NCBI RefSeq assembly: GCF_001713475.1
Contig: NZ_CP016499.1
Span: 2,294,001-2,358,000, forward strand
Reading direction: 5' to 3'
Source: Agrobacterium sp. RAC06
Lineage (GTDB): Bacteria > Pseudomonadota > Alphaproteobacteria > Rhizobiales > Rhizobiaceae
DNA length: 64,000 bases
Shown here: positions 32,339 to 53,436 of the stretch, one piece after another
How the letters are laid out: each line of letters starts with the position of its first letter
How positions within the stretch are numbered: the first letter of the stretch is position 1
Notes under the pieces: generated by a model
Databases searched by the model: none
Told to the model about the DNA's origin: nothing
What the model saw: the letters and a program-made list of their open reading frames with translations, nothing else
Translations under genes and position numbers: made by a program

Positions 32339-32376
32339 TCGCAGTCTCCAGCACGTCGTGGGGTCACCTGAGCACT

Positions 32377-32406: not shown

Positions 32407-32540
32407 TGTTGCCTTCTTCGCTTCGCTTGTCAGCCACCGGGATGCGGCTTCGCCGCCCGTCGCTTACCGCAACAGATTTGTACCTTGTGCGATTTTCCCC
32501 ATCCGCGTCGAATTAAGTCTTGTTTCGAAAGGACGAGGCG

Positions 32541-32858: not shown

Positions 32859-34456
32859 CCCTCATCACGCGCCTTCGCCTGCTGGCAATCGGCATCAAGC
32901 TTGCCGTGATCTACCTGTTCATGGCCTATCTCGTGGTCGGCATCATTCTCGGCATAGATGTCGTCATCCAGCACAATGCAGAACCCGGCGAAGAGCGCGG
33001 TTGGCTGAGCAGCAATCTGCCCGATGTGCTGAAGTATGTGCCCTTGATCGCAGCGGGCATCGGAGTTCTCATTCCCTTCCTCGCCCGGGCTCGTGCCTCA
33101 TGGGTCCATGGGACGGCAGAATGGGCAACACCGAAGGAGCTGATCAGGCTGACCAGGAGCAATGACGGGCTGCTGACCGGTCGGGATCTGCATTCTGGCA
33201 AGCTGCTGCACCATGATGGACCGGGCCATCTCCTCACCATGGCACCGACGAGAACCGGCAAGGGTGTGGGCACGATCATTCCCAATCTCCTGACCATTGA
33301 TCGATCGGTGATCTGCATCGATCCGAAGGGCGAGAATGCCAGGATCACGGCACGCGCCAGGCTGACGTTCGGCCCGGTCTACATCCTTGATCCCTTCGCC
33401 GTGACCGGCTTCAACACCTCTGCCTTCAATCCTCTCGACCGTCTTGATCCCCAGAGCCTCGATCTTGCTGAAGATGCCGGCACGCTTGCCGATGCGCTCG
33501 TCTTCGATGAACCGGGCATGGCAGGAGAAGCGCATTGGAACGAGGAGGCAAAGGCGCTGATCGCGGGACTGATCCTGATGATCGTTGCAACAGCGCGACC
33601 CCACGAGCGGCATCTTGGAACGCTCCGCCGGTATCTCACCGCCGACCCGCATCGGTTCACAGATCTGCTGAAGGACATGCAGCAGATGCCTGAAGCAAAT
33701 GGCCTGATTGCGCGTGCTGCCAATCGCCATCTCGGCAAGGCGGACCGGGAGGCGGCCGGCGTGCTCTCCGCTGCCCAGCGCCACACGCACTTCCTGGACA
33801 GTCCGCGCATGGTGGAGGTGCTGAAGCGATCGGATTTCCGCTTTGCCGATCTGAAACACCAGGCAGCAACCGTCTTCCTTGTCCTGCCGCCGGATCGGTT
33901 GTCGACCTATTCACGGTGGCTGAGATTGCTCATCACCCAGAGCCTCACCGACATGGCGCGTGATCCCGCCATTCCGGAAAAGCCCGTCCTTTATCTGCTC
34001 GACGAGTTCGCAGCGCTTGGCCATCTCGCACCTGTCGAACGGGCCATGGGTCTGATGGCAGGCTACGGCGTCCAGCTCTGGCCAATCCTGCAGGACCTGC
34101 ATCAACTGCGGGCTACCTACGGCGAACGCTCTGGCACCTTTCTCTCCAATGCCAGCGTACTTCAGGTATTCGGCGTCAACGACATCGAGACCGCAAGTCT
34201 GATTGCCCGGACCATCGGCCGCATGGACGAACGGCACGTCACGCAATCCTGGAGCAGTCCCAACCTACCGTGGAAGCCACCCAGCATCACATCGAGCGAG
34301 CATATCGTTGCCCGTGACCTGATGACCCCGGATGAGATCATGCGGCTCCCTGACGAAGCAATGATCCTGCTCAACAGGGGGCAGAGACCGGCACTGGCGC
34401 GCAAGATCCGCTACCACTCCGACCCGGAGTTCCGCACTCTCTTCGACCCGTCTTGA
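32855..34456 (+). CDS. traG: Type IV coupling protein TraG/VirD4
   Basis: A 533-residue ATPase of the VirD4/TraG family. Two N-terminal membrane helices (about 8-32 and 63-82) are followed by Walker A TRTGKGVGT near 132 and Walker B VLYLLDEFAALGHL near 378. It links the relaxosome to the secretion channel and pumps DNA. It is shorter than Ti plasmid TraG (around 640 residues), mostly at the C-terminus, but both nucleotide motifs are intact. No mating-pair-formation genes (virB/trb) are present in the window, so they must be elsewhere or be supplied in trans. Confidence 0.9.
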   Translation: MTLITRLRLLAIGIKLAVIYLFMAYLVVGIILGIDVVIQHNAEPGEERGWLSSNLPDVLKYVPLIAAGIGVLIPFLARARASWVHGTAEWATPKELIRLTRSNDGLLTGRDLHSGKLLHHDGPGHLLTMAPTRTGKGVGTIIPNLLTIDRSVICIDPKGENARITARARLTFGPVYILDPFAVTGFNTSAFNPLDRLDPQSLDLAEDAGTLADALVFDEPGMAGEAHWNEEAKALIAGLILMIVATARPHERHLGTLRRYLTADPHRFTDLLKDMQQMPEANGLIARAANRHLGKADREAAGVLSAAQRHTHFLDSPRMVEVLKRSDFRFADLKHQAATVFLVLPPDRLSTYSRWLRLLITQSLTDMARDPAIPEKPVLYLLDEFAALGHLAPVERAMGLMAGYGVQLWPILQDLHQLRATYGERSGTFLSNASVLQVFGVNDIETASLIARTIGRMDERHVTQSWSSPNLPWKPPSITSSEHIVARDLMTPDEIMRLPDEAMILLNRGQRPALARKIRYHSDPEFRTLFDPS

Positions 34457-36641: not shown

Positions 36642-38063
36642 ATGCTTCAAAGAAACATGGCCTGGGATACCATAGGATCCAGGGGAACAGACACTATTCC
36701 CACTTCAAACATCTATTCGATGATTGACCTATTTGCTGGGTGCGGCGGACTGTCGCTAGGGTTCGAGAACGCGGGGTTCACACCCGTTTTCGTCAATGAA
36801 CTCGACGGGGACGCGCGTGCAAGCTACTTGTTGAACCGTCATCATAAACTTGGAGGATTGCGGTTCTCTGAAAACCGTGACCTCCACAGCAGCGACGCCC
36901 ATGAGCTCAAGGGACAGCGCCTAGAGCAACTCGTAGCAGACCTTGCGAACATCCCCGAGCTCGACCTCCAGGTGGATAAACGCTCGCGTCCCGAAGCTGG
37001 AGGGGGCAGCTCCATCGACGTGTTGGCGGGAGGACCTCCCTGTCAGGGATTTTCTGGAATAGGCATCAGGCGCTCCTATTCGGTGGATAAGAAGGAGCTT
37101 CCTTCCAACCGCCTCTATGTCCGGATGGCCGACGTGATAAGGCGCGTGCGACCCCGTGTTTTCTTGTTTGAGAATGTTCGCGGCTTGCTGAATTCAAGAT
37201 GGACGAGGGATGGAGGCGACATGATCTTTCCTGATGTCCTTGCGGAGTTCAGGAAGATCACAGGCTATGAAGTGCGCTGGTCGCTGGTGTTTGCCAAGGA
37301 TTATGGGGTGCCACAAAACAGGCCACGTGTCCTGCTTGTTGGGATAAGGAAGGACATTCTGGAAAAATGTACGTTCCTTGAGCCGGGCCGTGATGCGAAT
37401 GATGCGATCGCTTGCGGGTTCCTGCCCGCGGGCGCGCCCGGACAATTTCCTGACCTTATTGACCTGCTAGATGATCTTATTGACGATTCAGTTCCGCCAA
37501 AACTTCATTTGCAGGAATTTGGTCCCGGTGCGTTTGAGACGCAGAAATACCTCCGACCACCCCGGACACAAATACAGAAAAAGCTGCGCAAGGCTCCTAA
37601 GTGGTACCGCGGCAAAAACGTGAGCCTAACCGAGCAAGAATACAGCCGTCATAAAGAGGACGTGGTAGCGAAATTCGAGTACATGCTGCGCAACCACGGG
37701 CGGATACCTGAGCATTTCAAGACCAAGAAATTCTCCCAGCGCCTGCTTAAGCCGCAGTGGGGCGAGGATGGTCCTAACATTACCGCGACCTCGCTCCCGG
37801 ATGACTATGTTCACTTTGCGCAGCCACGCATACTGACAGTGCGCGAGTGGGCTCGTCTCCAACTATTCCCGGACTGGTACCAGTTCGCCGGGAAACGCAC
37901 CACTGGAGGAATCAGGCGCGCGGGTAATCCGCGGGAAGGCGTATTTGAACGCGAAGTTCCGAAATACACCCAAATCGGGAATGCCGTCCCCGTCGGCCTT
38001 GCCGAGCATGTCGGTGGGCATTTCAAGCGAATACTAGACGAAGCCTTAGGTCGGGATGCTTGA
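36642..38063 (+). CDS. DNA (cytosine-5) methyltransferase
   Basis: A 473-residue C5 methyltransferase. Motif I MIDLFAGCGGLSLGFENAGF starts at residue 27, motif IV GGPPCQGFSGIG with the catalytic Cys is near 133, the ENVRGL motif near 177, QNRPRVLLVG near 226, and the C-terminal YTQIGNAVPVGLAEHV motif X is present. It methylates the target of the endonuclease encoded next, whose start overlaps its stop by eight bases. The first 26 residues precede motif I, so a later start at 36720 is less likely. A methyltransferase of this class also occurs in Druantia type II (DruM), but here it pairs with an endonuclease. Confidence 0.9.
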   Translation: MLQRNMAWDTIGSRGTDTIPTSNIYSMIDLFAGCGGLSLGFENAGFTPVFVNELDGDARASYLLNRHHKLGGLRFSENRDLHSSDAHELKGQRLEQLVADLANIPELDLQVDKRSRPEAGGGSSIDVLAGGPPCQGFSGIGIRRSYSVDKKELPSNRLYVRMADVIRRVRPRVFLFENVRGLLNSRWTRDGGDMIFPDVLAEFRKITGYEVRWSLVFAKDYGVPQNRPRVLLVGIRKDILEKCTFLEPGRDANDAIACGFLPAGAPGQFPDLIDLLDDLIDDSVPPKLHLQEFGPGAFETQKYLRPPRTQIQKKLRKAPKWYRGKNVSLTEQEYSRHKEDVVAKFEYMLRNHGRIPEHFKTKKFSQRLLKPQWGEDGPNITATSLPDDYVHFAQPRILTVREWARLQLFPDWYQFAGKRTTGGIRRAGNPREGVFEREVPKYTQIGNAVPVGLAEHVGGHFKRILDEALGRDA

Positions 38064-39258
38064 GAAAAGCGATACAGGCATAAGCAAAACCCTGAAGCTT
38101 TTCAATTCGTATGAGCTTGAGGTTGGGCTCCTTGTGCCCACTCCCACTGGGCTGAAGAAGTCAATAATGGACGCCACGGCGTCCGTTCGCGATTTCCTGC
38201 GGGATTTCGAGTTTCACGACTATAACGCTCAGCAGAAAGGCAGTGATGCCAAAGTCGGGCGGCGGGCCTACTACGTATACGCCAACCGCGTCGAAGAGAC
38301 GACGGTGTCGCTCTATCGTCCCGAAACCAAGAATGGCGATCCGCGCATTTGGTTTAGCAAGATGGGCACCTATGCAGAGCCCTTCAATTTGCTGGCCCTG
38401 TTAATCCATCACGGTGAACTGTATCTGGTCAACTGCAGCAGGCCGGAAATCACGGCCTCCTTGAATGATGCAAGCACGCCACTTGGTTCCATCGCAGCGC
38501 AGCTTCGCAAGGCCATCGACCCGGCAGTGGTCGAATTGCTCGACATGATCCAAGAGATTTCGCGGAGGGGTTTCATTCCGACGCTGCGTCCCGGCGATAC
38601 CGGCATCGGCATGACACTCGAGACCCATCTTGGTATTGCGGCTAACGCGAGCAAGGCGCCAGACTATAAAGGCATCGAGATCAAGGCGAAGAGACTACGC
38701 GGTAAGAAACCGAACAGGGTGACGCTGTTTTCACAGGTGCCGAACTGGTCGTTGAGCCCGATCAATTCGGCATGGAACCTTCTCTCGACCTACGGCTACC
38801 AACGGTCCGGGAAACTCAGGCTCAACCATGAAATCAATGCTACGAGCCCCAACTCCCTCGGATTCCAACTGGAGGTCGATGCGGGCAGGGACTGGCTGAA
38901 ACAGAACCATGTTGACGTGGTCAAGGATGCAAAGCGCCACGTCGTCACTTGGGAGATGGAGCATCTCAGGAAACGGCTAGCAGAAAAGCACCCCCAGACC
39001 TTTTGGGTTGGTGCACAGTGCCGGGGGCGTGGCGCTGGCGAAGAATTTCACTATATACAAGTCGAGCACACGCGCGCACCCAAAGTGCGGAATTTCGACG
39101 CGCTGCTTGAAGGTGGGCTGATATCCGTGGACTACCTCATGTCGCAGAAGGAGCCCACAAAGCAGAGGGTGCGGGACCATGGATACTTGTTTAAGATCCA
39201 CCCTTCGGACTTTGATGCGCTATTTCCGCCTGCGGACGTTCATCTGCTCGCACACTAA
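38056..39258 (+). CDS. MvaI/BcnI-family type II restriction endonuclease
   Basis: A 400-residue protein. Its central part, residues about 178-213 (RPGDTGIGMTLETHLGIAA, then APDYKGIEIKAKR), matches the MvaI/BcnI family: Glu189, Asp203 and the E208-x-K210 active-site pair. BcnI cuts CCSGG and MvaI CCWGG, so a related CC-N-GG-type target is likely but unproven. The first 170 residues form a separate domain, making it longer than BcnI (about 240 residues). It is coupled to the methyltransferase gene by overlap. Confidence 0.82.
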   Translation: MLEKSDTGISKTLKLFNSYELEVGLLVPTPTGLKKSIMDATASVRDFLRDFEFHDYNAQQKGSDAKVGRRAYYVYANRVEETTVSLYRPETKNGDPRIWFSKMGTYAEPFNLLALLIHHGELYLVNCSRPEITASLNDASTPLGSIAAQLRKAIDPAVVELLDMIQEISRRGFIPTLRPGDTGIGMTLETHLGIAANASKAPDYKGIEIKAKRLRGKKPNRVTLFSQVPNWSLSPINSAWNLLSTYGYQRSGKLRLNHEINATSPNSLGFQLEVDAGRDWLKQNHVDVVKDAKRHVVTWEMEHLRKRLAEKHPQTFWVGAQCRGRGAGEEFHYIQVEHTRAPKVRNFDALLEGGLISVDYLMSQKEPTKQRVRDHGYLFKIHPSDFDALFPPADVHLLAH

Positions 39259-39318
39259 TAGGGCCGCTAAACGAGCAATGAAGTTAGGATACTGCTGGAT
39301 GCAGTTCGGATCGCTGGC

Positions 39319-39744
39319 ATGGTCGATACCCTAACTCCCGCGGAACGTTCAACACGGATGGCTCTCATCCGGTCGCGTGATACATCCCCGGAGCTCGCCC
39401 TGCGCCGAGCGCTTCACCGCCGCGGATTTCGGTATCGGGTGAACGATAAGCGCTTACCGGGGAAACCCGACTTAGTCTTCAAAAAACATGGGGTCGTCAT
39501 CTTCGTGCACGGTTGCTTTTGGCACCGGCACGAAGGCTGCTCGGTCGCGAACAAGCCAAAGTCAAATACCGCGTTTTGGACGGCGAAATTCGACAGGAAC
39601 GTGCAGCGCGATGCACAAGTGCAAGATCGCCTTGCTCAAATGGGTTGGGACGTTTGGGTCGTGTGGGAGTGTGACTTAAATACAAAAGCCAAGGTCGAAG
39701 CGACCGCGGAACGGCTGCAGGGGATGCTATTAAGGGTTGAATAG
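39319..39744 (+). CDS. vsr: Very short patch repair endonuclease
   Basis: A 141-residue protein with the Vsr fold: STRMALIRSRDTSPELALRR (about 11-30), the FxVHGCFWHRHEGC segment (about 58-72) with catalytic and zinc-binding residues, and the C-terminal WDVWVVWECDL. Vsr nicks 5' of the T in T:G mismatches that arise when 5-methylcytosine deaminates, protecting the modified sites. Its place in the operon fits a cytosine-5 methyltransferase target. Proteins of the phage-associated DNA mismatch type are close relatives. Confidence 0.9.
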   Translation: MVDTLTPAERSTRMALIRSRDTSPELALRRALHRRGFRYRVNDKRLPGKPDLVFKKHGVVIFVHGCFWHRHEGCSVANKPKSNTAFWTAKFDRNVQRDAQVQDRLAQMGWDVWVVWECDLNTKAKVEATAERLQGMLLRVE

Positions 39745-39815
39745 GCCGGGCGGCTATGATCTCATAAGGATATAGAAAACAATACATTACGAAATGCAAA
39801 CTGGCGGGGGGCGGT

Positions 39816-42800
39816 TTGAGCGCGACATACATAAAATATAACCATGCGCTCAACGAATTGTTCTTCTCCGGGCGCTTTGCCTGGCGGCCGGTCTACCTGT
39901 CCCTTGATGCGAAGATGCGCCGCGAACTTGCTGGAATGCTCGGCGAGGACGAAGACGGGCTTGAAGAGAAGATCTGCAGCGTGGCAGGGAATGTGTTGGA
40001 CAAGCACGGCGATCCGTATGCGGCCATGAATGCCCATGCGCGCATTTGGTGGAGTAAATCACGGTCGACGCCACCGCCATTTACCGCCTTGCTGTTTACG
40101 CTTTCGCACGCCGCCGCCCTCATGGCGGCCGAGGGGGATTTCGGGTCTAACAATTATTATTTGAGGCTGGCGCAAGTTACGGGGCGTGACCGACAGGTCC
40201 TTAGTTTCAACGGTAAATCCACGGATCGACTTTGGGAACTGCTGAACCTCTGGCTGACTGAAAACGACTATGAGTTTGGCCGCCCCACCTCGGCTGCAAT
40301 CAACAAGTGGACATATGTCGGCAAAGCGCTGTCCCAAGTTGTCGTCCGCGCAGGCGACCGGGAGCTCTTCCATGATCTTTTCGCCCGGTACGGTTTTTCC
40401 GGAAATGAATCCATCTCCGCAGATGAGATGCGCCACTATTTGGCAAACTGGATTCTAACTAGCAAGCCCAACCGCCGCTTGAAGGCCGCTTGGCAGAAGC
40501 CGGAGCTTCAGCAGCGCGTGTGTGAAACGGCGGTTGCGGAGCTTGCAAACTGGGGTAGCGCAGACGGCACGCCCACCAAAGGCGTTGCATCCTCTGGAAA
40601 GAGGTCAGTCAAGCTGTCGTTGATTGCAAGCTTTGTGACGCGCTTCCCGCGTCCAACGAAGTTGGACTTGCAGCTCGGACGAACCGAGGAGCGAAGCGAG
40701 CCTTTGCGGCCCCTGTCGATCGAAGGGGCGCCCGGGCAGGAATTTGCTTTGGCAAACGAGGACTTTGGAACTTTCGCGACTATCCTACCGCGCCCCATAG
40801 GTGCGGATGGGCGCAGCCTAAGCCGATCGTACAGCTTTGCCGTGCCCGGTCAGGAAGCGAACCTTGATTGGCAACCTCGTCTTGTCATTCCACTCGCCAA
40901 GGCAAACGACGGGCCCTATTGGATTGAAGTGACGCGGGTCACGTTTGGCCAGCCTCACCTTATCCTTGTGCGAAACATCAGTAGCTTTCCGAAAAAGGTT
41001 GAGACCTATCTGTCGGATGCTGCCTTGGAGATGCCCGCAAAGCTGACGTCGCAAGAGTTGCCGGGCCTTCCCTCGGATTGGGTCTTGTACAAAGACGCAA
41101 GGCTAGGCCAGCCATGTTCGACGCCACCCTTGGACCTAGAAGCTCTCGTGCCGATCGGAGACGAGGGTGCGCTGGTCGTTGAGGGAAGCTTCCAACTTGC
41201 ACGGGGGATTTTCCATTCGCGTTCCAGTCTAGTCGCTAGTTTCCTGGCTTCCACTGGACCTACCGAAATTTTCGCCATGCCCATCGCAGCCACGGCAGGC
41301 GAAATCCTTGGTCGGGCCAAGGATGCTGGCAAGGCATGCCGGCTTGAGATCGCGGGAGGGGCTGCCAAGGGATATCCCGGATTGCGGCTGGAAAGCCGCA
41401 AGGGCCCCACTGTCGTGGCAAGCACTGAAATCCTCCTGCGAGATGCCAACAATCCGCGCCCCCTCGATAGGCAAGGCAGGGATGCCCTCTGCTACACTGC
41501 GATCGTGTCAGCAAGTAGCCATGCGCAAGGCCAAGGGCAGGAAATCCCCATCCGGGTCGCTGGCATGCTCACTGCAGGGATCAATGTCGCCGTCGATGAC
41601 ATAGGGAGTTCGCCCGTCGAAGGGGACTTGCCGACTGGCGACTGGGAAGAGGTGCAGGATGCAACCCTTACAAGCCCCATCCTGAACCATGTAGCGAACC
41701 AGACATGCGCGGAACGTGGCTACCACATATGGCTATGCGAGACGCTGGAGCCTGGCAGGCCTAAGAAGACCCCGCTAAGGCAGGAGTGCAAAGACTGCGC
41801 CCAAGCCATCGTCGTTGTAGATCGCGGGAAAACCACGGCGCGCATCTTGGCCCCAACCCTCCGCCCCTTGAAGACGTTCACGGGCGTCGGCAGCCCCGAG
41901 GCTCCCCGCATCGACCACGACTTGTTATTTGATGCCTTGTGTTTCCTTGGCACAGGTTCCTGGGGGCGGTTTGAAACGCTATTAGCCGACAAGGTGGATA
42001 TGCCATGGCAGGCCAGGGAAATCGCACATAATTATTCGTTGCTAGGCCTGCTGGATATCGAGCTGCGACCAGGCACTAACATTGTGCAGCGCTGGTCAGT
42101 ACCCGCCAGCGTGGTTAGCTTCATCGACGAAGAGTCAGCATTCCTATCCGGTTTCCGCTGCCAGTCCATGCTTGAGTCTATCTTTACTGCCGTGCGTAAA
42201 GCCGGAGGGGAGATCGTGCAGGCGCGCCGCTCATTTGTCCCTGCGCATGTAGAGATAAACAGCCTGTCTCCCGAGGCATTGTCGCGAGCCTTGGACGGAA
42301 TCGCGGACCCCTTGGGACGTCCAATATCCATCAACCAACACCCTGGCCGCGCTATCGCGCGCGCATGTCTCGAATGGAGCGATCTCGATTCCTGCCTGAT
42401 ACCGATCTCGATAGGGCGTCAATCTAACTTGCAGGTCTTTAACCTGCAGACGGCGCGCTGGGAAACGACTAACGCGATTAGTTCGCAGGGTGGCGCATAT
42501 CGATGGAACGATGGCAGGCAGGCCTATGCCTTTGTCGACGAAAGTGGCCGGGGATTGGCCGGTCCATACCAAGTCGTAAAACTGATGGCGGCCCGGTCCA
42601 AGCGGCGCCAGCTCCACGCTTATGATGGAAAGAAGCGAGCACTTCTTTCCACCTTGGGATGCGACGTCCCCGGCCTGCTTGGGCGCGCCCTCGTTGCGTG
42701 CTCTGGAACATTGCCCGAGATTTCCGACGGCTTGCTCAAATACAGCAATGTCGATCCCGCGACTGCCCGATACGTCCTTGATGCCATGTACAAGAAAGAA

Positions 42801-42842
42801 GAAGCACGCGATGAAGCACGCTACGCCCACCAGCGTCATTGA
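39816..42842 (+). CDS. Druantia type III-like DruH candidate
   Basis: A 1008-residue protein starting at TTG, 71 bases after vsr. The N-terminus (residues 6-30, IKYNHALNELFFSGRFAWRP and VYLSL) resembles DruH-type proteins as I recall them, and its size and place directly before a DUF1998 helicase fit Druantia type III, which consists of druH and druE. No enzymatic motif is seen. A CxxC-type cluster (C630, C641, C661, C664) may bind zinc. The C-terminus overlaps the helicase start by 32 bases. Druantia assignment rests on context and architecture, not on a search. Confidence 0.55.
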   Translation: MSATYIKYNHALNELFFSGRFAWRPVYLSLDAKMRRELAGMLGEDEDGLEEKICSVAGNVLDKHGDPYAAMNAHARIWWSKSRSTPPPFTALLFTLSHAAALMAAEGDFGSNNYYLRLAQVTGRDRQVLSFNGKSTDRLWELLNLWLTENDYEFGRPTSAAINKWTYVGKALSQVVVRAGDRELFHDLFARYGFSGNESISADEMRHYLANWILTSKPNRRLKAAWQKPELQQRVCETAVAELANWGSADGTPTKGVASSGKRSVKLSLIASFVTRFPRPTKLDLQLGRTEERSEPLRPLSIEGAPGQEFALANEDFGTFATILPRPIGADGRSLSRSYSFAVPGQEANLDWQPRLVIPLAKANDGPYWIEVTRVTFGQPHLILVRNISSFPKKVETYLSDAALEMPAKLTSQELPGLPSDWVLYKDARLGQPCSTPPLDLEALVPIGDEGALVVEGSFQLARGIFHSRSSLVASFLASTGPTEIFAMPIAATAGEILGRAKDAGKACRLEIAGGAAKGYPGLRLESRKGPTVVASTEILLRDANNPRPLDRQGRDALCYTAIVSASSHAQGQGQEIPIRVAGMLTAGINVAVDDIGSSPVEGDLPTGDWEEVQDATLTSPILNHVANQTCAERGYHIWLCETLEPGRPKKTPLRQECKDCAQAIVVVDRGKTTARILAPTLRPLKTFTGVGSPEAPRIDHDLLFDALCFLGTGSWGRFETLLADKVDMPWQAREIAHNYSLLGLLDIELRPGTNIVQRWSVPASVVSFIDEESAFLSGFRCQSMLESIFTAVRKAGGEIVQARRSFVPAHVEINSLSPEALSRALDGIADPLGRPISINQHPGRAIARACLEWSDLDSCLIPISIGRQSNLQVFNLQTARWETTNAISSQGGAYRWNDGRQAYAFVDESGRGLAGPYQVVKLMAARSKRRQLHAYDGKKRALLSTLGCDVPGLLGRALVACSGTLPEISDGLLKYSNVDPATARYVLDAMYKKEEARDEARYAHQRH

Positions 42843-45800
42843 TTATGTTCGGGACGGTTACCGCCGCTACTATGACAGCGCGTTCTGGATGCGAGATCCC
42901 GCCATCATGGCGGAACGCTTGGCGATCCTAAACTCCTACGGAGTGATGGCGCAGGAGCCACTGATCGAGGCAGTACCGCAATATCCGTCCCTTAGGCCTA
43001 TTGAAGAGACCTGCCGGGAGGCGGGGCTTGATCCGGCCGTAGCGAAAAACCTTGCCCATGTCGTTTTCGGGGGCGATACCAGCATCAAGCTGAGGGAACA
43101 CCAAGCGCAGGCCTTGCGCACGGGCATGCGAGGCGATGAGGAAGGACGATGCAATGTCGTCGTCACTTCAGGAACGGGCTCGGGCAAGACTGAGTCGTTC
43201 CTGTTGCCCCTGTTGGCGCGCCTCATGCAGGAGCGTCGTAACGGCGTGGGACCAGTGGGCCTCAACCCTTGGTGGGAACGCGAGTTGACCACGGCTAATG
43301 CGACCTGGCGACACGCCCGCGATGGCATGGAACCTTATGTTACGCCTGCCGTGCGCGCGATGGTGCTCTATCCAACGAATGCTCTGGTGGAAGACCAGAT
43401 CTCACGACTGCGCCAAGCGGCAGCGCGCGCCTTGGCCATCCATGGGAAGCCGCTATTCTACTTTGGACGCTACACTGGCGCGACCATTGGCTCGACATGG
43501 GTTCCCCCGGTAGCGCTCAAGGCAGCAGACCGCAATCGCATCAACGAGGTCGGCCGCGAGGTGAACCGCATTGCACGCGAGGTCGTAGCGATCGAGCAGG
43601 CCATGCGGGCCGAAGGGCGCAAGGAGGACGGCGTCCTTGAGGTTTGCAGCCAATTCCAAGATCCCCGCATCGGGGAAATGCTCACGCGCTGGGACATGAT
43701 CGCGTCCCCGCCAGATATCCTCATCACCAACACCAGCATGATGAACATCATGCTTATGCGTGACGTGGAGGCGCCTATCTTCGAGAGCACGCGCCGTTGG
43801 CTTCAGCAAGATAGCAACAACAAGTTCACGCTCATCGTCGACGAACTTCATAGCTACCGTGGCACGCAAGGGACCGAAGTGGCCCTTGTTGTGCGCAACA
43901 TGCTCGATCGCCTCGGTTTGGGTCCAGATTCCGAGCAGCTGCGCTGCATTGCAACGAGCGCCTCCTTGGATGGTGAAGCGGGCAAGGAATACCTAGAGCA
44001 ATTCTTTGGCGTTCCCGGCCGGACGTTTGCCATCTACCCCGGAAATCCGAAAGTGTTCGATGTCGAGCTGCCGGTTAATCCAAGTGTTATCGAAAAAAAC
44101 TCTGCGGCCCTCGCCGATGGAGGAGAGGCGGCTACCGCGGCGCTGGCTTTGATTACGAGTCATTTCTCGCCGAGGGAAGCCCTCGCCTCCGCGTGCCGCG
44201 TTGCCGGCCAGGCACTGGTCTTTAATCCCACGACGGGCAAGCAAGAACCGGTGGTGCGCCCGGCATCATTGTCGTCAATATCGGCCGCCCTGTTTGGCGA
44301 GGAGACGAGGACCGATCTCCTTGAGCCGTTGTTCATTGCCGCGAAGATGGAAGGTCGCGGATCGTGGGAAGAGCCAAAGCCCACGTTCCGGTCCCACATG
44401 TTCCTTCGTCAGGTCCAAGGCATATGGGCGTGCTCAAATCCATCTTGCACGGAAGTCCCCGAGAATTTCCGGTCGGAAGGGCGCAAGATCGGCCGCCTGT
44501 TCAAGGCACCAGCCATGAAGTGCAATTGCGGTGGGCAAGTCCTTGAACTCCTCTATTGCTATGATTGCGGGGAAGCTTTCCTCGGAGGCTTTGTCGTGCC
44601 GTCCACGGATGGCGGGCTGTCAGGGCTTACATTCCTGGAAGCAACGAAGGCAGGGGAAGGCAATAGCAAGGCAAGCCAGGTCTTTGAGCGCACCCGCGAC
44701 GAATTCCGTTGGTACTGGCCCGGTGGAAAGATTCCTGCCGGGAATGCGAGCTGGACTCATACATCACCAAGCAAAAAAACGATCAGGTTGCAGTTTGTGA
44801 AAGGTCGATTCGATCCCTTCGTCGGAACACTCAACCAAGGGGAAGATGGTGGCGTTGTATTCGACGTGTCTGGCAATCTTGCTGACAATGAGAAAATAGC
44901 CGCCCTTCCTGAAAACTGCCCTTGCTGCGGCAGCTCTCGTTCCTTCTTCAATTCCCGCGACAGCAAGACCTTCTTCAGGGGCGTCGTTGAAACGCCGATC
45001 CGCGGGTTGCGGACCGGTTTGAATGTCACGACGCAGCTCGTGGCGGACCGTGTGATGTTCGCCACTAGTGATACCAATGACGCGGAAAAAATGATTGCGT
45101 TCACGGATAGTCGTGACGATGCAGCGGACCTCGCGGCTGGGTTGGAGCTTCATCACTTCCGAGATCTCATCCGCCAGCTAATATTCGTAGGCATACAACC
45201 GCGCGCCGTACCCTCCAGTGGAGAGCTTGAGACACTCGTCGGCAAGGATCCCGATTCTGATCCTGAGGTGCGCCGCGTCCTAGACGAGGCAGAGCGGCGG
45301 ACACCTGGCGTATTCAATGCCGTTAGGGCCAATAAATTCAGCGCTGCAAGTACAAGCGAGAAAGAACTCATCGCCAAGCATGATGCCAGCCTCGCGGCCA
45401 ATTCCGTGACCTGGCCGTCCCTGCTGACATCAATGCGCAATGAACTCATCAGGCTGGGGCAAAACCCTGCTGGAACTGAGGCTAGCCGCTCAAAATGGGG
45501 TGACGGCAAGACGCCGTGGTGGCGTTACTTTGACCCGCCAAACGATGAATGGAAGCCTCTGGACAACGACGTCGCGGCCGACGAACGTCGCCGGATCATG
45601 GGGTATTTTTCAACTCATGTCGCGAAATCCTTGTTCGACAAGGCTGGACGCGACATGGAGTCCATGCGGATCGCTACCATCGAGGTTGAAGGCAGGGCTG
45701 GGCCCGCCCTCGGCCTCGATGAGGAGGTTGCGCACGGGGTGTTGGCTAACGTTGTTCGCGTCCTCGGTCATACACGGCATTTTGTCGGCGAGCGTACAAG

Positions 45801-48279
45801 GACTTCAACGAACCTGCCCCAAGCCGTGGCCGCTTATGTCGACAAAGTTTCCGGCCTGCTCAACCGAGATAAAAACGAGCTAGGTGCCACCATCGGTGAA
45901 TTCCTGGGAAGTCGAGGGATCATCAGCGAGAATTGGCTCTTGCGGATGGACAATCACACAAACCTTCCCTTGAAAATTGTTCCGGCTGGGGAACGGCCGC
46001 TCTTTAGGTGCGACAGCTGTTCTCGCCTCACCATGGTGCTACCCGTCAAGGCATGCACGACACCGCATTGCCAAGGGCATCAGTTCACCCAAGTCGAGAA
46101 TCCCGGCGAAGACTACTATAGCTGGGTATCTCGCGAGCCCGCCCATCGCACGGCCGTGGCGGAGCTGACGGGTCAGACAAAGCCAATGAGCGAGCAGCGA
46201 CGCAGGCAAAGGCTGTTCAAGGGCACGGCCTTCCTTGGCGACGAAACGATAACAACGCATGGACTAGAGGCGCTATCCGTCACGACGACGATGGAGGTCG
46301 GCGTCGACATCGGTTCCTTGAAGCTTGTCCTGATGGCCAACATGCCTCCCCAGCGCTTCAATTACCAGCAGCGCGTGGGTCGCGCCGGTCGTGCGGGACA
46401 GGCATTCTCATATGCTGTCACGATCTCGCGTGGCGCTGCCCACGACGACTATTATTTCAACAATCCGGAACGAATGACAGGTGATGTTCCGCCGCAGCCG
46501 CAGCTTGATCTTTCCCGCCCAGAGATCATCCGGCGCGTCCTTGCTGCAGAATGCTTACGCCGTGCATTTGGACAATTGGATCCGGGCCCAACCCGCAACG
46601 AAGAGAGCCTGCATGGAAATTTTGGCCGGGCGGGCGAGTGGCTAGGGATCTACCGAGAGCCCGTTACAGCTTGGTTGGCCGGGGCAAGCGACGTTGACTA
46701 TGTTGCTGCACGCCTTGCTGCCCACACTGGGTTGGTTGGCCGGGAACGAGTGCTTGTAGACTATATTCGCACCAGCTTGCCTGCCGAGATTGATGAGTGC
46801 GTTCAGGATTCCCGTTTCATCCAAGAGGAATTGAGCCACCGCTTGGCGGTCGCTGGCCTGATGCCGATGTTTGGATTCCCGACGCAAGTACGCAGCTTGT
46901 TTCGCGACGATTTCAAGGCAAGCAAGGTCGAGCAAACCGTCATCAGTGATCGTCCGCTAGATCATGCGGTCTGGGCATTCTCTCCCGGCTCTGAGATTCC
47001 TAAAGACAAACAGCTCAATACGGCGAGCGGGTTCGTCTTCAAGAAGGATGGGTTCAGAGGTATCGAGAACCAGCCTGAACCTTTGGGGAAAGCGATGCCG
47101 TTCACGCGCTGCACAAGTCCGTCTTGCGGTGCGATCGCGCATGGCAGCAGCACGAGTTGTGGAGTTTGCCAGCAGCCGTCACGCAACTTCTCCCTGTACC
47201 AACCAAAAGGCTTCTTGGCTTCATACAAGGCAAATGACTATGACGGCCAAAGACAGCGCGGCCCCGCGCTTCCGCCGCCTGTCCGTGCCTTCCCGCAAGA
47301 ATACGGCGATCTCGCATGTGGTCCGATGAAACTGGCCATAGGGCCTGGACCCATCGCTGTCGTGAATGACAATGGAGGACGCCTGTACGATTTTTATCAA
47401 GAGATCAACAATCGGGTTGCTGTAAGGGATCCCGACCTTTTCCGGGTGTCCGTGCCGTGGCCAGACCCGACAACGCAACCATTCGACAAGGGGGCGATTG
47501 GCGCGGTGTTCACAACGGATGTCCTCAGCTTCCATATCGCAGGAGCAGCGGGGATCGGGAACCTTGGCGTTCTAGATGTGCGAGGCCAACCTTCCGCCCG
47601 CGCGGCGATGGCGTCTTTTGCTGAGTTGGTGAAGCTTTCACTTGCAACCGCGCTTGACGTCGATCCCTCGGAATTCCGCGTGGGTCGCCAGCCGCTTGCG
47701 GTTCCGACCTGTGAAACTGAGCAAGTTTTCGTAGCAGACGCCTTGGAGAATGGTGCTGGCTACGCCCGCTGGGCGTCCGAGCCGGCGCACATGGAGGGCG
47801 CAATCAAAGCGTTCTACGGCAGCGTCGCGCCAAAGTGGGAGCACCCTCGCCATTCTGATGACTGTGATCGGTCATGTCCTGACTGCCTGCGCAATTACAG
47901 CAACCGTTTTAGCCACGGCATGCTGGATTGGCGGCTGGCTCTGGACCTTGCTGACCTGATTCTCGGCAATCCCCTCAAGCTGGAGCGATGGTTGGAGGGA
48001 GCGGAGGATCCTTCGATCGATGCTTTCCTGCGGATTTGCGAGGGGGCAGGATTGTCCGTTGAGCGGGACTACAGCAGCGAGGGATTGCCGGTCTTGCGAT
48101 CCGGGAGTCGCGCATTGGTCCTCGGCCATCCATTGTGGCATACACAGAATGGTTTGCTGCAACCCCAACAAATATCAGCGCGTGACGAGCTGAGGACGAG
48201 TGGCGTTGAGCCCTTGTTCGTTGACGTCAGGGATTTTTCGGCCCGCAGTGCGGCCTATTTCTTGAGGTTGCAATCTTGA
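42811..48279 (+). CDS. druE: DEAD/DEAH-type helicase with DUF1998 (DruE candidate)
   Basis: An 1822-residue helicase. Walker A GTGSGKTES is near residue 122, the box II variant VDELHSYRG near 343, zinc-type Cys clusters CSNPSC...CNCGG...CYDCGE near 540-590, the helicase C-terminal domain with VGRAGRAGQ near 1190, and the DUF1998 block CDRSCPDCLRNYSNRFSHGM near 1686. Druantia DruE proteins have this exact order and size; DISARM splits it into DrmA and DrmB. ATG 42811 (MKHATPTSVIDYVR) is the likely start; an upstream extension to 42622 overlaps the previous gene and looks unlike protein. It is coupled to the next gene by a TTGA overlap. Confidence 0.82.
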   Translation: MKHATPTSVIDYVRDGYRRYYDSAFWMRDPAIMAERLAILNSYGVMAQEPLIEAVPQYPSLRPIEETCREAGLDPAVAKNLAHVVFGGDTSIKLREHQAQALRTGMRGDEEGRCNVVVTSGTGSGKTESFLLPLLARLMQERRNGVGPVGLNPWWERELTTANATWRHARDGMEPYVTPAVRAMVLYPTNALVEDQISRLRQAAARALAIHGKPLFYFGRYTGATIGSTWVPPVALKAADRNRINEVGREVNRIAREVVAIEQAMRAEGRKEDGVLEVCSQFQDPRIGEMLTRWDMIASPPDILITNTSMMNIMLMRDVEAPIFESTRRWLQQDSNNKFTLIVDELHSYRGTQGTEVALVVRNMLDRLGLGPDSEQLRCIATSASLDGEAGKEYLEQFFGVPGRTFAIYPGNPKVFDVELPVNPSVIEKNSAALADGGEAATAALALITSHFSPREALASACRVAGQALVFNPTTGKQEPVVRPASLSSISAALFGEETRTDLLEPLFIAAKMEGRGSWEEPKPTFRSHMFLRQVQGIWACSNPSCTEVPENFRSEGRKIGRLFKAPAMKCNCGGQVLELLYCYDCGEAFLGGFVVPSTDGGLSGLTFLEATKAGEGNSKASQVFERTRDEFRWYWPGGKIPAGNASWTHTSPSKKTIRLQFVKGRFDPFVGTLNQGEDGGVVFDVSGNLADNEKIAALPENCPCCGSSRSFFNSRDSKTFFRGVVETPIRGLRTGLNVTTQLVADRVMFATSDTNDAEKMIAFTDSRDDAADLAAGLELHHFRDLIRQLIFVGIQPRAVPSSGELETLVGKDPDSDPEVRRVLDEAERRTPGVFNAVRANKFSAASTSEKELIAKHDASLAANSVTWPSLLTSMRNELIRLGQNPAGTEASRSKWGDGKTPWWRYFDPPNDEWKPLDNDVAADERRRIMGYFSTHVAKSLFDKAGRDMESMRIATIEVEGRAGPALGLDEEVAHGVLANVVRVLGHTRHFVGERTRTSTNLPQAVAAYVDKVSGLLNRDKNELGATIGEFLGSRGIISENWLLRMDNHTNLPLKIVPAGERPLFRCDSCSRLTMVLPVKACTTPHCQGHQFTQVENPGEDYYSWVSREPAHRTAVAELTGQTKPMSEQRRRQRLFKGTAFLGDETITTHGLEALSVTTTMEVGVDIGSLKLVLMANMPPQRFNYQQRVGRAGRAGQAFSYAVTISRGAAHDDYYFNNPERMTGDVPPQPQLDLSRPEIIRRVLAAECLRRAFGQLDPGPTRNEESLHGNFGRAGEWLGIYREPVTAWLAGASDVDYVAARLAAHTGLVGRERVLVDYIRTSLPAEIDECVQDSRFIQEELSHRLAVAGLMPMFGFPTQVRSLFRDDFKASKVEQTVISDRPLDHAVWAFSPGSEIPKDKQLNTASGFVFKKDGFRGIENQPEPLGKAMPFTRCTSPSCGAIAHGSSTSCGVCQQPSRNFSLYQPKGFLASYKANDYDGQRQRGPALPPPVRAFPQEYGDLACGPMKLAIGPGPIAVVNDNGGRLYDFYQEINNRVAVRDPDLFRVSVPWPDPTTQPFDKGAIGAVFTTDVLSFHIAGAAGIGNLGVLDVRGQPSARAAMASFAELVKLSLATALDVDPSEFRVGRQPLAVPTCETEQVFVADALENGAGYARWASEPAHMEGAIKAFYGSVAPKWEHPRHSDDCDRSCPDCLRNYSNRFSHGMLDWRLALDLADLILGNPLKLERWLEGAEDPSIDAFLRICEGAGLSVERDYSSEGLPVLRSGSRALVLGHPLWHTQNGLLQPQQISARDELRTSGVEPLFVDVRDFSARSAAYFLRLQS

Positions 48280-50228
48280 TCGAGCTTGTAGGTATCTCCG
48301 GAAGTCCTGAAAATGAAGCAGCGCTCGCCATCAAGCAGGCGTTTATGCAAACTTGGCCCGGCATCGAGTCTTCTCCGGAAGAGGAGGACTTGATTAGGAT
48401 TGCCTCAAACGTGAAGCTTTCGGGGCACAAGGTTAGCGATATAGACGTCGTGGTCATGGCACGGCTGAGAAACAAGCGATACATCGTGACAAACGCCGTC
48501 ATCCACGATGCCGATGGAAATCGCATCCTCGGCGGACAAGTGCGCGTACGGTCTTTCGTCGCGGCTATAGAAGTCAAGGACCACACTGCGGATGGCATGC
48601 AAATCGCCGCCGGTGGTGTAATGGTCCGGTACGGAGGTAGGTGGAAGAGCGCGACGGACCAGAATGAAGAGCAGAGGTACGCCCTGCTAGAGTATCTACA
48701 GGGTGCAACGAACGCTAATCCATGGGTCTATCGATGCCTGATGCTGCGCGGAATCGACCAGCTCCCGAAAGTCCGGGGCCGAATCCATCCTTCCGCAGGC
48801 GCAGTAGCCGGACAGTTCACCACGGCAAACCTGCTTGTGGCCATGGCATCCGTCAATGGAATACCGAAGATCGGACATGAACATGTCATTCGATCGGCAA
48901 ATGATGAGGTTATGGAGCAGGTCATCGATGATCCCTTGCTCATACCCATGGTGCCTTCCGATCTTGATCGCAAGCGGATGGACCGCATTGCCGCTCGGCC
49001 AGCAGAGGCCCGGGAACTCGCGGAATTTCTGGGCGAACATCGCGTGCATCTTCGTGGCCACGGAGGAACAGGCAAGACCATTTTGCTCTTGCAGGCAGCA
49101 TACGAAGCCTATGTCCGTCATGGAAAGAGGTGCCTGCTGCTGACCTACAACACGGCTCTGGCCGCGGATATCCAGCGGACGCTTGCGTTGATGAACATCC
49201 CCGCTGACGGGGAAGGCGGTGGCCTTGCCATCCGTACAGTCATGTCATTCATGTTTTCTTGGTTGCGCAGGCTCGGCGTTGCCGAGGGCGGGGAGCTAGA
49301 TTTTTCATCCTATGAAGCGAAATGCCGAGAAGCACTGGATTACATCGACCAAGGCGCGGTGGGAGAGGCAGAAATTGAAGCCATAAAGGCCGAGGATTTC
49401 ATTCAGTTTGATTTTGATGCCGTCCTGATCGACGAAGCACAAGACTGGCCACAGCCCGAGGCAGACTTGCTGTGCCGCCTATATGGTGGCAACAGGATTT
49501 CCCTAGCCGATGGAATGTCGCAGATTATTCGTGGCAACCCCACCAATTGGAAATCTTCGGTCATAGGCCAGCCCAAGGTCGGACAGCGCCACTTGCAAGG
49601 TGGACTGCGTATGAAAGCGAATCTCTGTGTATTTGCTAATGCGCTGGCCGAGGAAGTTGGCCTGCCATGGCGCGTGGACGTGAACCGGGATGCGCCCGGA
49701 GGGCGGGTCATTGTCATTGAGGGAAGCTATTGCGACGCAACTGAGCTTCAGAAAGATGTAATGGCGTCTGCGCTGAAGACGGGCAATATGCCCTTGGATC
49801 TCCTTCATTGCGTGCCGCCGTCCGGGGTCACCGAAAAGGAAGGCCGGAGGTCAAGCCGGCTAGGCCAAGCCTTCATGCAGCAAAACTGGAGCATCTGGGA
49901 TGCCGTGGACGAACGCATACGACGCCAATTCCCTCGGTCGGCGGAAGAGCTTCGCATCCTCCAGTATGATTCTTGCCGAGGCCTAGAAGGCTGGACTACC
50001 GTTTTGGAGGGACTGGACGAGTTTTGGGAGCTAAAACGTTCACAAGCGGCGCGGGACCTCCACGACGGTTTTGCGACGGGTGCGTCGCCGGAAGCTATCG
50101 CCTGGCGATGGTGCATGATCCCCCTTACGCGCCCGATTGATACGCTGGTGGTTACCTGCTGTCCGAGCAGCGTGGTTGGCCAGGTGCTGTCTGACATGCG
50201 GAAGAAATTGCCTGATTTCTTTACCTAG
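48276..50228 (+). CDS. NERD-type nuclease fused to SF1 helicase/ATPase
   Basis: A 650-residue protein starting at TTG inside the stop of the DruE-like gene. Residues 1-105 show a NERD/PD-(D/E)XK nuclease pattern: D55-I-D57 followed by E99-V-K101. The rest is an UvrD/DUF2075-like SF1 helicase with Walker A GHGGTGKTILLL near 259, VLIDEAQDWPQ near 383, and C-terminal DSCRGLEGWTTVLEG and the PLTRPIDTLVV motif. It probably cuts and unwinds or loads on DNA. It is not a standard Druantia component, so its coupling to DruE is notable. The nuclease activity is inferred. Confidence 0.8.
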   Translation: MIELVGISGSPENEAALAIKQAFMQTWPGIESSPEEEDLIRIASNVKLSGHKVSDIDVVVMARLRNKRYIVTNAVIHDADGNRILGGQVRVRSFVAAIEVKDHTADGMQIAAGGVMVRYGGRWKSATDQNEEQRYALLEYLQGATNANPWVYRCLMLRGIDQLPKVRGRIHPSAGAVAGQFTTANLLVAMASVNGIPKIGHEHVIRSANDEVMEQVIDDPLLIPMVPSDLDRKRMDRIAARPAEARELAEFLGEHRVHLRGHGGTGKTILLLQAAYEAYVRHGKRCLLLTYNTALAADIQRTLALMNIPADGEGGGLAIRTVMSFMFSWLRRLGVAEGGELDFSSYEAKCREALDYIDQGAVGEAEIEAIKAEDFIQFDFDAVLIDEAQDWPQPEADLLCRLYGGNRISLADGMSQIIRGNPTNWKSSVIGQPKVGQRHLQGGLRMKANLCVFANALAEEVGLPWRVDVNRDAPGGRVIVIEGSYCDATELQKDVMASALKTGNMPLDLLHCVPPSGVTEKEGRRSSRLGQAFMQQNWSIWDAVDERIRRQFPRSAEELRILQYDSCRGLEGWTTVLEGLDEFWELKRSQAARDLHDGFATGASPEAIAWRWCMIPLTRPIDTLVVTCCPSSVVGQVLSDMRKKLPDFFT

Positions 50229-51965: not shown

Positions 51966-52202
51966 ATGACAAACACCATGTTGAACATAAAGGTCGTTCA
52001 GCCCCGCATGATGTCGATGCGACAAGCGGCCGATTACATCGGAATACCACTCAAGCGCTTCAGCCGGATCTGCTCCGTCAGACCGGTTGCACTGGCTGAC
52101 GGAGACGATCGCTATGACATTCGTGACCTCGACCAGTGGCTCGACCACCTAAAGGCCGGGCACGCCGACCCCGACAACGAAATCGTGGGGCGGCTCGGAT
52201 GA
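51966..52202 (+). CDS. xis: Excisionase/MerR-like HTH protein
   Basis: A 78-residue protein with a MerR/Xis-type helix-turn-helix at its start (residues 16-35: MSMRQAADYIGIPLKRFSRI) and RYDIRDLDQWLDHLKAG near its end, the usual pattern of recombination directionality factors and of HTH_17 DNA-binding proteins. Its stop overlaps the integrase start by ATGA, so the two are co-translated. It probably controls the direction of recombination at tRNA-Phe and may regulate int. Confidence 0.75.
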   Translation: MTNTMLNIKVVQPRMMSMRQAADYIGIPLKRFSRICSVRPVALADGDDRYDIRDLDQWLDHLKAGHADPDNEIVGRLG

Positions 52203-53290
52203 CGACGGGAAGAGAAAGACGCACCAACAAGTACAAGGGCTGGCAAATCTTCCGTGACAAGGACGGCCATTGGCGATGCTATCACCGCAAGTCCCGCCAC
52301 AAGATCGACTGCGTGAGGTTCGAACCCTACAGCCTGCCCTTCGACATGGAAGTTCATCGGATCAACGAGCTCCTGGCAGAGAAGCAGGCAAAGCCTGGCA
52401 CACTCGGCATGCTGATCACGCGCTATCGGGATAGTGTCCGGTTTAGAACCGAGCTGGCACCAAGGACGCGCGCCGACTACCAGAATTGTTTCGACTACCT
52501 GCAGGCGATCGAGGACACGCCACTTGACCGCTTCAATCCGCCGCTAATCGCGAAGATCCGCGACAAGGCCCTCGAGCAGCGCAAGTTCAGATTCGCGAAC
52601 TATGTCCGCTCCGTACTGTCGGTGATCTTCGACTGGGGTATCGAGTACGGCTATACGAAGGACAACCCGGCCTCGCGGGTCAAACCGGCCCGTCGACCGA
52701 AGTCCCTGCCTGACGCCAACAGGCCCTGGACGGACGCTGAGCGCGAAACGGTACTTGCGGCACTTCCATCCCATATGAAGCTGCCGATCGCGCTGATGAT
52801 GTTCTACGCGCTCGATCCGCAGGATGCACTTAGCCTCCCCCGGTCGGCGATCTCGGATGCCGGGCTGGACACCCGTCGCAACAAGACTGGACGACCAATC
52901 TACCTGCCATTGTTCGAACCGGTCGCCGAGGCAATGGCCAATGCACCTCAACACGATGCCGTCACGCTATGCGCCAACAGCCGGGGCTTGCCCTGGACCT
53001 ATCACGGCTTCAGTACCAACTGGATCAAGCTGAAGGGCAAGCTCGAGGTGGAGGGTGCCATCCAGCCGGGCCTGACGTTGAAGGGACTAAGGCACACCGT
53101 CGCGACCATCCTTGCCGAGATGGGCCGCGATCACGGCACGATCGCGCTGGTGCTCGGCCACGCCACCGAGGCCATGGCAAAGCATTATTCAAGACGCGCC
53201 GACATGACCCGACAAGCGACATCGGTGGTCGCGGATTTCGGGGAAGAATTGAACAAACGGAAAACGAGAGTTGTCAAACCGGCTGGCTGA
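52199..53290 (+). CDS. int: Tyrosine integrase of the element
   Basis: A 363-residue phage-type integrase. Box II GLRHTVATILAEMGR (about 296-310), LGHATEAM and the catalytic Tyr in KHYSRRADM close the C-terminus. The usual first catalytic Arg (TG-R region) reads YALDPQDALSL, with Asp206 where Arg is expected, and the box II His reads Lys (KGLR). The N-terminal arm-binding part contains GWQIFRDKDGHWRCYHR. It is placed 70 bp from the 3' end of tRNA-Phe, the expected layout for integration there. Activity may be lowered by the missing Arg. The start is ATG 52199 within the xis stop. Confidence 0.88.
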   Translation: MTTGRERRTNKYKGWQIFRDKDGHWRCYHRKSRHKIDCVRFEPYSLPFDMEVHRINELLAEKQAKPGTLGMLITRYRDSVRFRTELAPRTRADYQNCFDYLQAIEDTPLDRFNPPLIAKIRDKALEQRKFRFANYVRSVLSVIFDWGIEYGYTKDNPASRVKPARRPKSLPDANRPWTDAERETVLAALPSHMKLPIALMMFYALDPQDALSLPRSAISDAGLDTRRNKTGRPIYLPLFEPVAEAMANAPQHDAVTLCANSRGLPWTYHGFSTNWIKLKGKLEVEGAIQPGLTLKGLRHTVATILAEMGRDHGTIALVLGHATEAMAKHYSRRADMTRQATSVVADFGEELNKRKTRVVKPAG

Positions 53291-53360
53291 AACTGTCAAA
53301 CCCAAGAAAACAAGGAGATGAGAAATGTTCGAAAACTATAGCCATATCAAGGGCTTGGAA

Positions 53361-53436
53361 TGGTGCCCGGAGGCGGATTTGAACCACCGACACGCGGATT
53401 TTCAATCCGCTGCTCTACCAACTGAGCTATCCGGGC
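53361..53436 (-). tRNA. tRNA-Phe (GAA)
   Basis: Seventy-six bases including the encoded CCA. Acceptor GCCCGGA/TCCGGGC, D-arm GCTCAGTTGGTAGAGC, anticodon loop TTGAAAA giving anticodon GAA, T-arm GTCGGTGGTTCAAATCCGCC. The 3' end points to the integrase, so this tRNA is the presumed insertion target of the element to its left. No second copy of its 3' end was seen within the window. Confidence 0.95.

What the first reader, a model, noticed from the sequence alone, without database searches (positions are those of the whole stretch)
36642..50228. Combined restriction-modification, Vsr and Druantia-like defence operon
Six co-directional genes, several overlapping, join a cytosine methyltransferase, an MvaI/BcnI-type endonuclease and Vsr to a DruH/DruE-like pair and a NERD-helicase. 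Druantia type III is described as druH plus druE; a type II subtype uses a cytosine methyltransferase. The present layout looks like a hybrid or an unrecorded subtype in which modification may mark self for the large helicase as well as the endonuclease.
Basis: partly seen in the sequence, partly recalled or inferred. Interest (0 to 1): 0.84.

Follow-up and report, generated by a model that had tools for sequence, protein, structure and literature searches.

The report
DruG-less Druantia with plug-in restriction cassette
A mobile island in a rhizobium-like bacterium carries an antivirus machine of the Druantia kind joined in one operon to a complete restriction-modification pair and its DNA-repair helper, and relatives suggest that this self-marking part is a swappable module.

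Summary
The six genes are real: C5 methyltransferase (M), MvaI/BcnI endonuclease (R), Vsr, DruF, DruE, and a UvrD-like helicase with a putative NERD nuclease domain (P650). The 1008-aa protein is DruF, not DruH, so the core is type II-like, not type III. DruG, requisite for PADLOC type II, was not found in the genome; P650 follows DruE in 9 of 9 relatives of this branch (two seen only as fragments).

The R-M pair is no one-off: it lies beside 6 of 8 readable relatives of this branch (4 lineages), on either side and strand, against any MvaI/BcnI gene in 9 of 385 class genomes. DruF, DruE and P650 trees group the window with relatives that carry another methylase family; the M tree does not. So the cassette is exchanged independently of the core. 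In 5 of 5 relatives where the gene after R is readable it is a MutY/MIG-type glycosylase, suggesting that two mismatch-repair enzymes alternate.

The operon lies on a 54.6-kb element between 48-bp repeats in tRNA-Phe. I read it as a layered DNA-targeting defence with a plug-in self-marking module; whether the mark also restrains the core is unproven. New variant of a known kind.

The parts
36642..38063 (+). M: C5-cytosine DNA methyltransferase, 473 aa; PCQ, ENV, QNRPR and GNAVP motifs present (motif names recalled)
   Evidence: PF00145 9.8e-55; best PADLOC profile MTase_II 3.1e-70, DruM2 3.9e-51; alignment
38056..39258 (+). R: MvaI/BcnI-family restriction endonuclease, 400 aa with a ~160-aa N-terminal extension; APDYKGIEIK aligns with MvaI APDFHDIEIK
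   Evidence: PF15515 8e-59; R.MvaI 2oa9 3.4e-8 with alignment; D..E-x-K kept in 10 of 10 aligned R
39319..39744 (+). V: Vsr mismatch endonuclease, 141 aa; D of PGKPDL and HGCFWHRH kept
   Evidence: TIGR00632 4.2e-43; E. coli Vsr 1cw0 7e-31 with alignment
39816..42842 (+). DruF, 1008 aa, the fastest-diverging gene of the core; helical N part, Ig-like beta domain at 448-543, alpha/beta C part (model)
   Evidence: DruF2 PDLC00023 7.5e-95; identities; AlphaFold2 pLDDT 82.9
42811..48279 (+). DruE, 1822 aa YprA-type SF2 helicase; Walker A, D344-E345-L-H347, QRVGRAGR and a C-terminal cysteine cluster invariant in 10 aligned loci; no PD-(D/E)xK signature seen at the C-terminus (by eye)
   Evidence: DruE2 PDLC00014 E=0; alignment
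48276..50228 (+). P650: N-terminal putative NERD/PD-(D/E)xK nuclease (E12, D57, E99, K101, Q129 invariant in 32 of 32) plus UvrD-like SF1 helicase
52136..53290 (+). tyrosine integrase of the carrying element
   Evidence: PF00589 7e-9
53358..53405 (.). right 48-bp direct repeat, overlapping tRNA-Phe (53361-53436, -); the left copy lies 1.26 kb before the window
28877..32437 (-). MobA/MobL relaxase with helicase domains (TraA-like) of the carrying element
   Evidence: PF03389 5.7e-64, PF13604 3.6e-58
32855..34456 (+). TraG/VirD4-type coupling protein of the carrying element
   Evidence: PF02534 2.8e-73

Best explanation
A composite, modular DNA-targeting defence made of two exchangeable blocks. 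Block 1 (M-R-V) is a complete Type II restriction-modification pair with its own T:G-mismatch repair enzyme: M puts 5-methylcytosine on host sites (inferred), R cuts sites that lack it (inferred from family and intact catalytic residues), and Vsr mends the T:G mismatches that 5mC deamination leaves (inferred). Block 2 (DruF-DruE-P650) is a DruG-less, Druantia type II-like core: DruE is an ATP-driven translocase/helicase whose own C-terminal nuclease looks dead, DruF is a probable sensor or adaptor, and P650 is the probable effector, a UvrD-like helicase with an intact-looking nuclease site. Most likely R breaks unmodified incoming DNA first, and the DruE/DruF/P650 core then engages ends and single-stranded or replicating phage DNA and degrades it; M has to protect the host against R and may also restrain the core. 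Shown here: gene content, conservation of active-site residues, recurrent linkage of the blocks, independent exchange of the cassette, carriage on an integrated element. Not shown: any activity, the methylated motif, and the order of events.
For: Linkage: in 6 of 8 readable relatives of the DruF-DruE-P650 branch the same kind of M-R pair is adjacent (L014, L015, L016, L017, L018, L023; not matched in L019, L024; L013 is cut off), in several positions and orientations. Base rate in the class: a MvaI_BcnI gene in 9 of 385 genomes, DruF2 in 2 of 385, both only in the window's own genome. Exact contig lengths shared by R and DruF relatives: 6 of 36 DruF contigs of 12 kb or more, mean chance count 0.13 over the whole lists. 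Exchange: DruE, DruF and P650 trees put the window with L019/L024 (and L013 for DruF) at 100/100, 100/100 and 100/99; the M tree puts it with the other methylase family at 100/97; L014 and L015 share 88% DruE but only 50% R, with the cassette on opposite sides; R of L016 groups with a Phaeobacter plasmid R at 100/100. Repair partner: Vsr directly before DruF in the window, L013 and L019; HhH-GPD glycosylase right after R in 5 of 5 readable others, with no Vsr match there at E<=1. Core partner: P650 directly after DruE in 9 of 9 relatives of this branch, two seen only as N-terminal fragments. Analogy only: Druantia III DruE prefers 3'-tailed DNA (section heading) and engages ssDNA-containing replication intermediates (abstract, PMC13192584).
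Against: Two of 8 readable relatives of this branch carry a methylase but no matched R, so R is not essential to the core. The long type of R also exists without Druantia: of 7 plasmids with 80% or more of R covered, DruF was matched in 1. The 6 of 8 are only 4 lineages. No expression, phage or biochemical data. The nuclease call for P650's N-terminal domain has no profile or fold match of its own.
Confidence: 0.55

Rival explanations
1. One integrated system: M's methylation marks self for both R and the DruE complex, so M is the DruM of this Druantia and R is an extra effector.
For: A C5 methylase lies near DruF-DruE in 10 of 10 readable relatives, including the 4 without a matched R (L019, L020, L024, L030). 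Type II is described with a methylase (passages in PMC10273834, and PMC8565338).
Against: The same core clade runs with two methylase families whose recognition regions share 24% identity, so the core would have to read 5mC in general or be re-tuned. The best PADLOC profile for M of the window, L019 and L024 (the three of this branch that were scanned) is a generic Type II methylase, whereas in the two loci without P650 (L020, L030) it is DruM2.
Confidence: 0.28
2. Two independent defence units that are merely neighbours on a mobile defence island, with no functional coupling.
For: The cassette sits on either side of the core and on either strand; the element carries another probable conflict gene (GT4-conflict at 1083-6011).
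Against: One family of R-M pairs recurs beside one rare core, while both are rare in the class; in the window the cassette stands where L019 has the methylase of an M-V-DruF-DruE-P650 run.
Confidence: 0.12
3. Type IV-like action: the core attacks foreign DNA that carries modified cytosine, and the R-M pair covers unmodified DNA.
For: Druantia II is called 'Type IV CoCoNuT' in PMC12458937 (passages).
Against: The core lives beside a C5 methylase in 10 of 10 readable relatives, which would make it self-targeting unless motif-specific.
Confidence: 0.05

Closest known systems
Druantia type II (Doron 2018, recalled; PADLOC)
   Same: Full-length DruE2 and DruF2 matches and a C5 methylase in the operon
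   Different: No DruG match; P650 instead; methylase closest to Type II R-M enzymes; adjacent R and Vsr
Druantia type IV (PADLOC)
   Same: DruE and DruF without DruG; weak DruL4 match at DruF 758-993, 1.4e-7
   Different: DruE and DruF score higher with type II profiles; no separate DruL match; a methylase is present
Druantia type III
   Same: DruE homologue
   Different: No DruH; two PLD domains are described for type III DruE (passage of PMC12458937), and no PLD family was among the Pfam matches of this DruE
MvaI/BcnI Type II R-M with m5C methylase, e.g. Phaeobacter plasmid pP75_g
   Same: M 68% and R 36% identical, same gene order
   Different: No Druantia core in the stretch fetched (14.6 of 31.9 kb), and DruF was not matched in that plasmid
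dcm-vsr of E. coli, and the G-T mismatch enzyme beside a methanogen R-M (both recalled)
   Same: C5 methylase paired with a T:G repair enzyme, Vsr or HhH-GPD
   Different: Here the two repair enzymes alternate within one defence family

Membership tests
Druantia type II | DruE of type II kind | tested here: met
   PDLC00014 E=0, 1428 bits, residues 5-1821
Druantia type II | DruF | tested here: met
   PDLC00023 7.5e-95, residues 4-984
Druantia type II | DruM cytosine methylase | tested here: inconclusive
   DruM2 3.9e-51, but MTase_II profiles score higher, 3.1e-70
Druantia type II | DruG | tested here: not met
   PDLC00024 and PDLC00025 have no match in the own genome at E<=1; no DruG in the PADLOC lists of R, V, F, E and P650 (P650 to E<=10); M's list shows 25 of 61 families
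Druantia type III | DruH | tested here: not met
   no DruH in the complete PADLOC lists of R, V, F, E and P650 at E<=0.001; M's list shows 25 of 61 families, none DruH
Druantia type IV | DruE + DruF + separate DruL, without DruM | tested here: not met
   methylase present, no separate DruL gene; only a weak DruL4 match inside DruF
DISARM | DrmA-type helicase with DrmB and DrmC (recalled) | tested here: not met
   DrmA profiles match DruE only locally (3.1e-10); no DrmB or DrmC in the lists shown
Type II restriction-modification, MvaI/BcnI | endonuclease of the family with catalytic residues, next to a C5 methylase | tested here: met
Type II restriction-modification, MvaI/BcnI | M and R recognise the same motif | not testable with these tools
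   needs a methylome and cleavage assay
Vsr | Vsr family match and catalytic residues | tested here: met
   TIGR00632 4.2e-43; aligned to 1cw0
NERD nuclease | PD-(D/E)xK active site | tested here: inconclusive
   E12, D57, E99, K101 and Q129 invariant in 32 of 32, placed on predicted helices and strands; no profile or fold match of the domain itself

The most novel reading that the evidence does not exclude
This branch of Druantia has a plug-in self-marking slot: one DruF-DruE-P650 core works with whatever 5mC cassette occupies the slot (solitary methylase or full R-M pair, with Vsr or a MIG-like glycosylase as the mender). The core would then sense either absence of 5mC in general or DNA ends made by the cassette's endonuclease, and P650 would be the missing effector nuclease of DruG-less Druantia.
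Probability: 0.3. Interest if true: 0.75.

Novelty: new variant of a known kind. Interest (0 to 1): 0.5.

Why it matters
Why Druantia type II carries a methylase is not explained in the passages seen here. A natural set of loci in which the same core is paired with different methylases, with and without an endonuclease, makes the question testable: swap or delete the cassette and see whether the core still tells self from non-self. It would also supply a candidate effector nuclease for a core whose DruE nuclease looks dead, and it suggests two unrelated T:G repair enzymes alternating as companions of one kind of C5 methylation cassette.

Tried and rejected

Rows dropped before counts: L013 (contig starts at Vsr) from the M and R counts; L022 is the same place as L030; L017's glycosylase position is off the contig. 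L020 is in no tree or identity table; L013 is only in the DruF tree (its DruE frame is broken); L017 is missing from the R and P650 trees (fragments); L014's partial M is in the identity table but not in the M tree. L017/L018 (90% DruE) and L014/L015 (88%) are not independent, so the 6 of 8 stand for 4 lineages. In one search the window's own cluster (P0001) and P0008 (no contig length) were left out of 52 DruF rows, and one of 120 P650 rows (P0119) was missed by slip; its length equals none in the other lists.

Full report
WHAT IS THERE. The six genes exist as described. By profile they are a C5-cytosine methyltransferase (PF00145 9.8e-55), an MvaI/BcnI endonuclease (PF15515 8e-59), Vsr (TIGR00632 4.2e-43), DruF (PDLC00023 7.5e-95), DruE (PDLC00014 E=0) and a UvrD-type helicase (PDLC01087 8.3e-12). 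M/R, F/E and E/P650 overlap, and the other two gaps are 60 and 71 bases. Active-site residues look intact: M motifs, R aligned to R.MvaI with D..E-x-K kept, Vsr aligned to the E. coli enzyme, DruE Walker A, DEAH-type and QRVGRAGR motifs invariant in 10 loci. By eye the DruE C-terminus shows no PD-(D/E)xK signature, in line with the 'predicted inactivated Vsr' that PMC12458937 reports for types I and II (passages).

WHAT IT IS NOT. DruH is in none of the complete PADLOC lists of R, V, F, E and P650, nor among the 25 of 61 families shown for M, so the type III reading falls. DISARM falls too. The type II reading fails on DruG: neither DruG2 profile tried matches anywhere in the genome at E<=1, and P650 is not DruG even at E<=10. 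PMC8565338 (passages) names DruM and DruG as requisite for type II and says that type II was seen only in Proteobacteria. So this is a DruG-less, type II-like variant.

THE R-M CASSETTE RECURS. Readable relatives outside the window: 10 (L014-L020, L023, L024, L030; L013 is cut off at Vsr). A C5 methylase is near the core in 10 of 10, and the MvaI/BcnI R in 6 of 10, or 6 of 8 in the P650 branch. Close pairs (L014/L015, L017/L018) reduce the 6 to 4 lineages. In the class sample a MvaI_BcnI gene is in 9 of 385 genomes and DruF2 in 2 of 385; the window's genome is the only one with both. A second, cruder test by exact contig length finds R on 6 of 36 DruF contigs of 12 kb or more (chance mean 0.13 over the whole lists); it is a lower bound, because only 120 of 3028 R relatives were listed and only the longest contig of a cluster is known. 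Against exclusivity: of 7 plasmids with 80% or more of R covered, DruF was matched in only one.

THE CASSETTE MOVES. It lies upstream on the same strand (window, L015), upstream and divergent (L016, L017, L018), downstream on the opposite strand (L014) or downstream on the same strand (L023). Trees of DruE, DruF and P650 group the window with L019 and L024 (and L013 for DruF) at 100/100, 100/100 and 100/99; the methylases of L019 and L024 are a different family (37% to the window's; recognition region 24%), and the M tree groups the window with the R-linked methylases (100/97). L014 and L015 share 88% DruE but 50% R. L016's R groups with the R of a Phaeobacter plasmid in which DruF was not matched (100/100). 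L019 reads M-V-F-E-P650; the window reads M-R-V-F-E-P650 with a different M. The simplest account is that an M-R pair replaced the methylase of an M-V-F-E-P650 operon. Several forks of the M, R and P650 trees are open or weak; only starred ones are used.

TWO MENDERS. In 5 of 5 relatives where the gene after R can be read (L014, L015, L016, L018, L023) it is an HhH-GPD glycosylase, and no Vsr match at E<=1 was found in those loci. Its nearest solved relatives are Geobacillus MutY and, nearly tied for L015, the G-T mismatch enzyme 1kea (3.2e-28 and 4e-28); for L014 MutY is ahead (3.8e-28 against 3e-24). By length the proteins lack the MutY C-terminal domain, and they carry an RT[RT]A segment like 1kea's RTTA. 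T:G activity is therefore probable, not shown; an A:G role is not excluded. Vsr stands directly before DruF in the window, L013 and L019, and 10 kb away in L024.

THE CARRIER. A 48-bp perfect direct repeat covering the 3' part of tRNA-Phe occurs at window 53358-53405 and 54,620 bases to the left, 1.26 kb outside the window. Between them lie an integrase beside the tRNA, a relaxase, a coupling protein, genes of sugar-catabolism type and a GT4-conflict protein. PMC12458937 reports ARMADA/Druantia III elements in tRNA-Phe of E. coli (passages).

HOW IT MOST LIKELY WORKS. R cuts DNA without the M mark; Vsr protects the host from the mutagenic side of that mark; DruE, DruF and P650 then act on ends, single-stranded or replicating phage DNA. 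The second half leans on Druantia III work: the abstract and section headings of PMC13192584 (passages) describe DruE as a helicase-nuclease that prefers 3'-tailed DNA and engages ssDNA-containing intermediates. Whether M also restrains the core is the open point: a C5 methylase is near the core in every readable relative, which speaks for it; two unlike methylases serve one core clade, which speaks against strict motif reading.

NOVELTY. A search for papers holding Druantia, MvaI and 'restriction endonuclease' found 0. Druantia with NERD found 2, neither on this operon in the passages read. Druantia with type II and Vsr found 3: PMC12458937 (passages and sections 5 and 7) and PMC11090510 (passages) do not describe this layout there; PMC10542128, an earlier version of the latter, was not opened. 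The library holds open-licence papers only, so absence here is not absence from print.

Noticed in passing
window 36147-36218: Perfect tandem array of GGGCAGA, 10.3 copies, in the stretch upstream of M; a possible variable repeat.
   Followed up: no
window 1083-6011 (-): 1642-aa protein with a GT4-conflict glycosyltransferase domain (PF20706 1.4e-113) and a weak NACHT match (0.00047, under the cut-off), on the same element: a second probable conflict gene.
   Followed up: no
window 27379-28638 (-): Fic/DOC family protein next to the relaxase.
   Followed up: no
L024 2892-13777: Shinella plasmid: between Vsr and the methylase beside the Druantia core lie a DndH-like 1817-aa protein and two proteins of 503 and 702 aa without PADLOC matches; perhaps another defence system sharing the methylase.
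   Followed up: partly
L026 11202-11252: Right after R of the Phaeobacter plasmid, a 17-residue match (82%, E 0.006) to the start of the L014 glycosylase; perhaps a remnant of the same third gene.
   Followed up: no
L013 3633-9053: The DruE frame of the Mesorhizobium tianshanense locus is split into several open frames; described only.
   Followed up: no
L023 14950-15759 (-): UzuA-like GIY-YIG protein (8.2e-46) directly upstream of the Druantia core on the Alisedimentitalea plasmid.
   Followed up: no
L030 1987-15145: More distant layout DruF-DruE-371 aa-314 aa-M-147 aa; the 371-aa protein resembles PD-Lambda-5_A N-terminally, and the methylase fits DruM2 best.
   Followed up: partly
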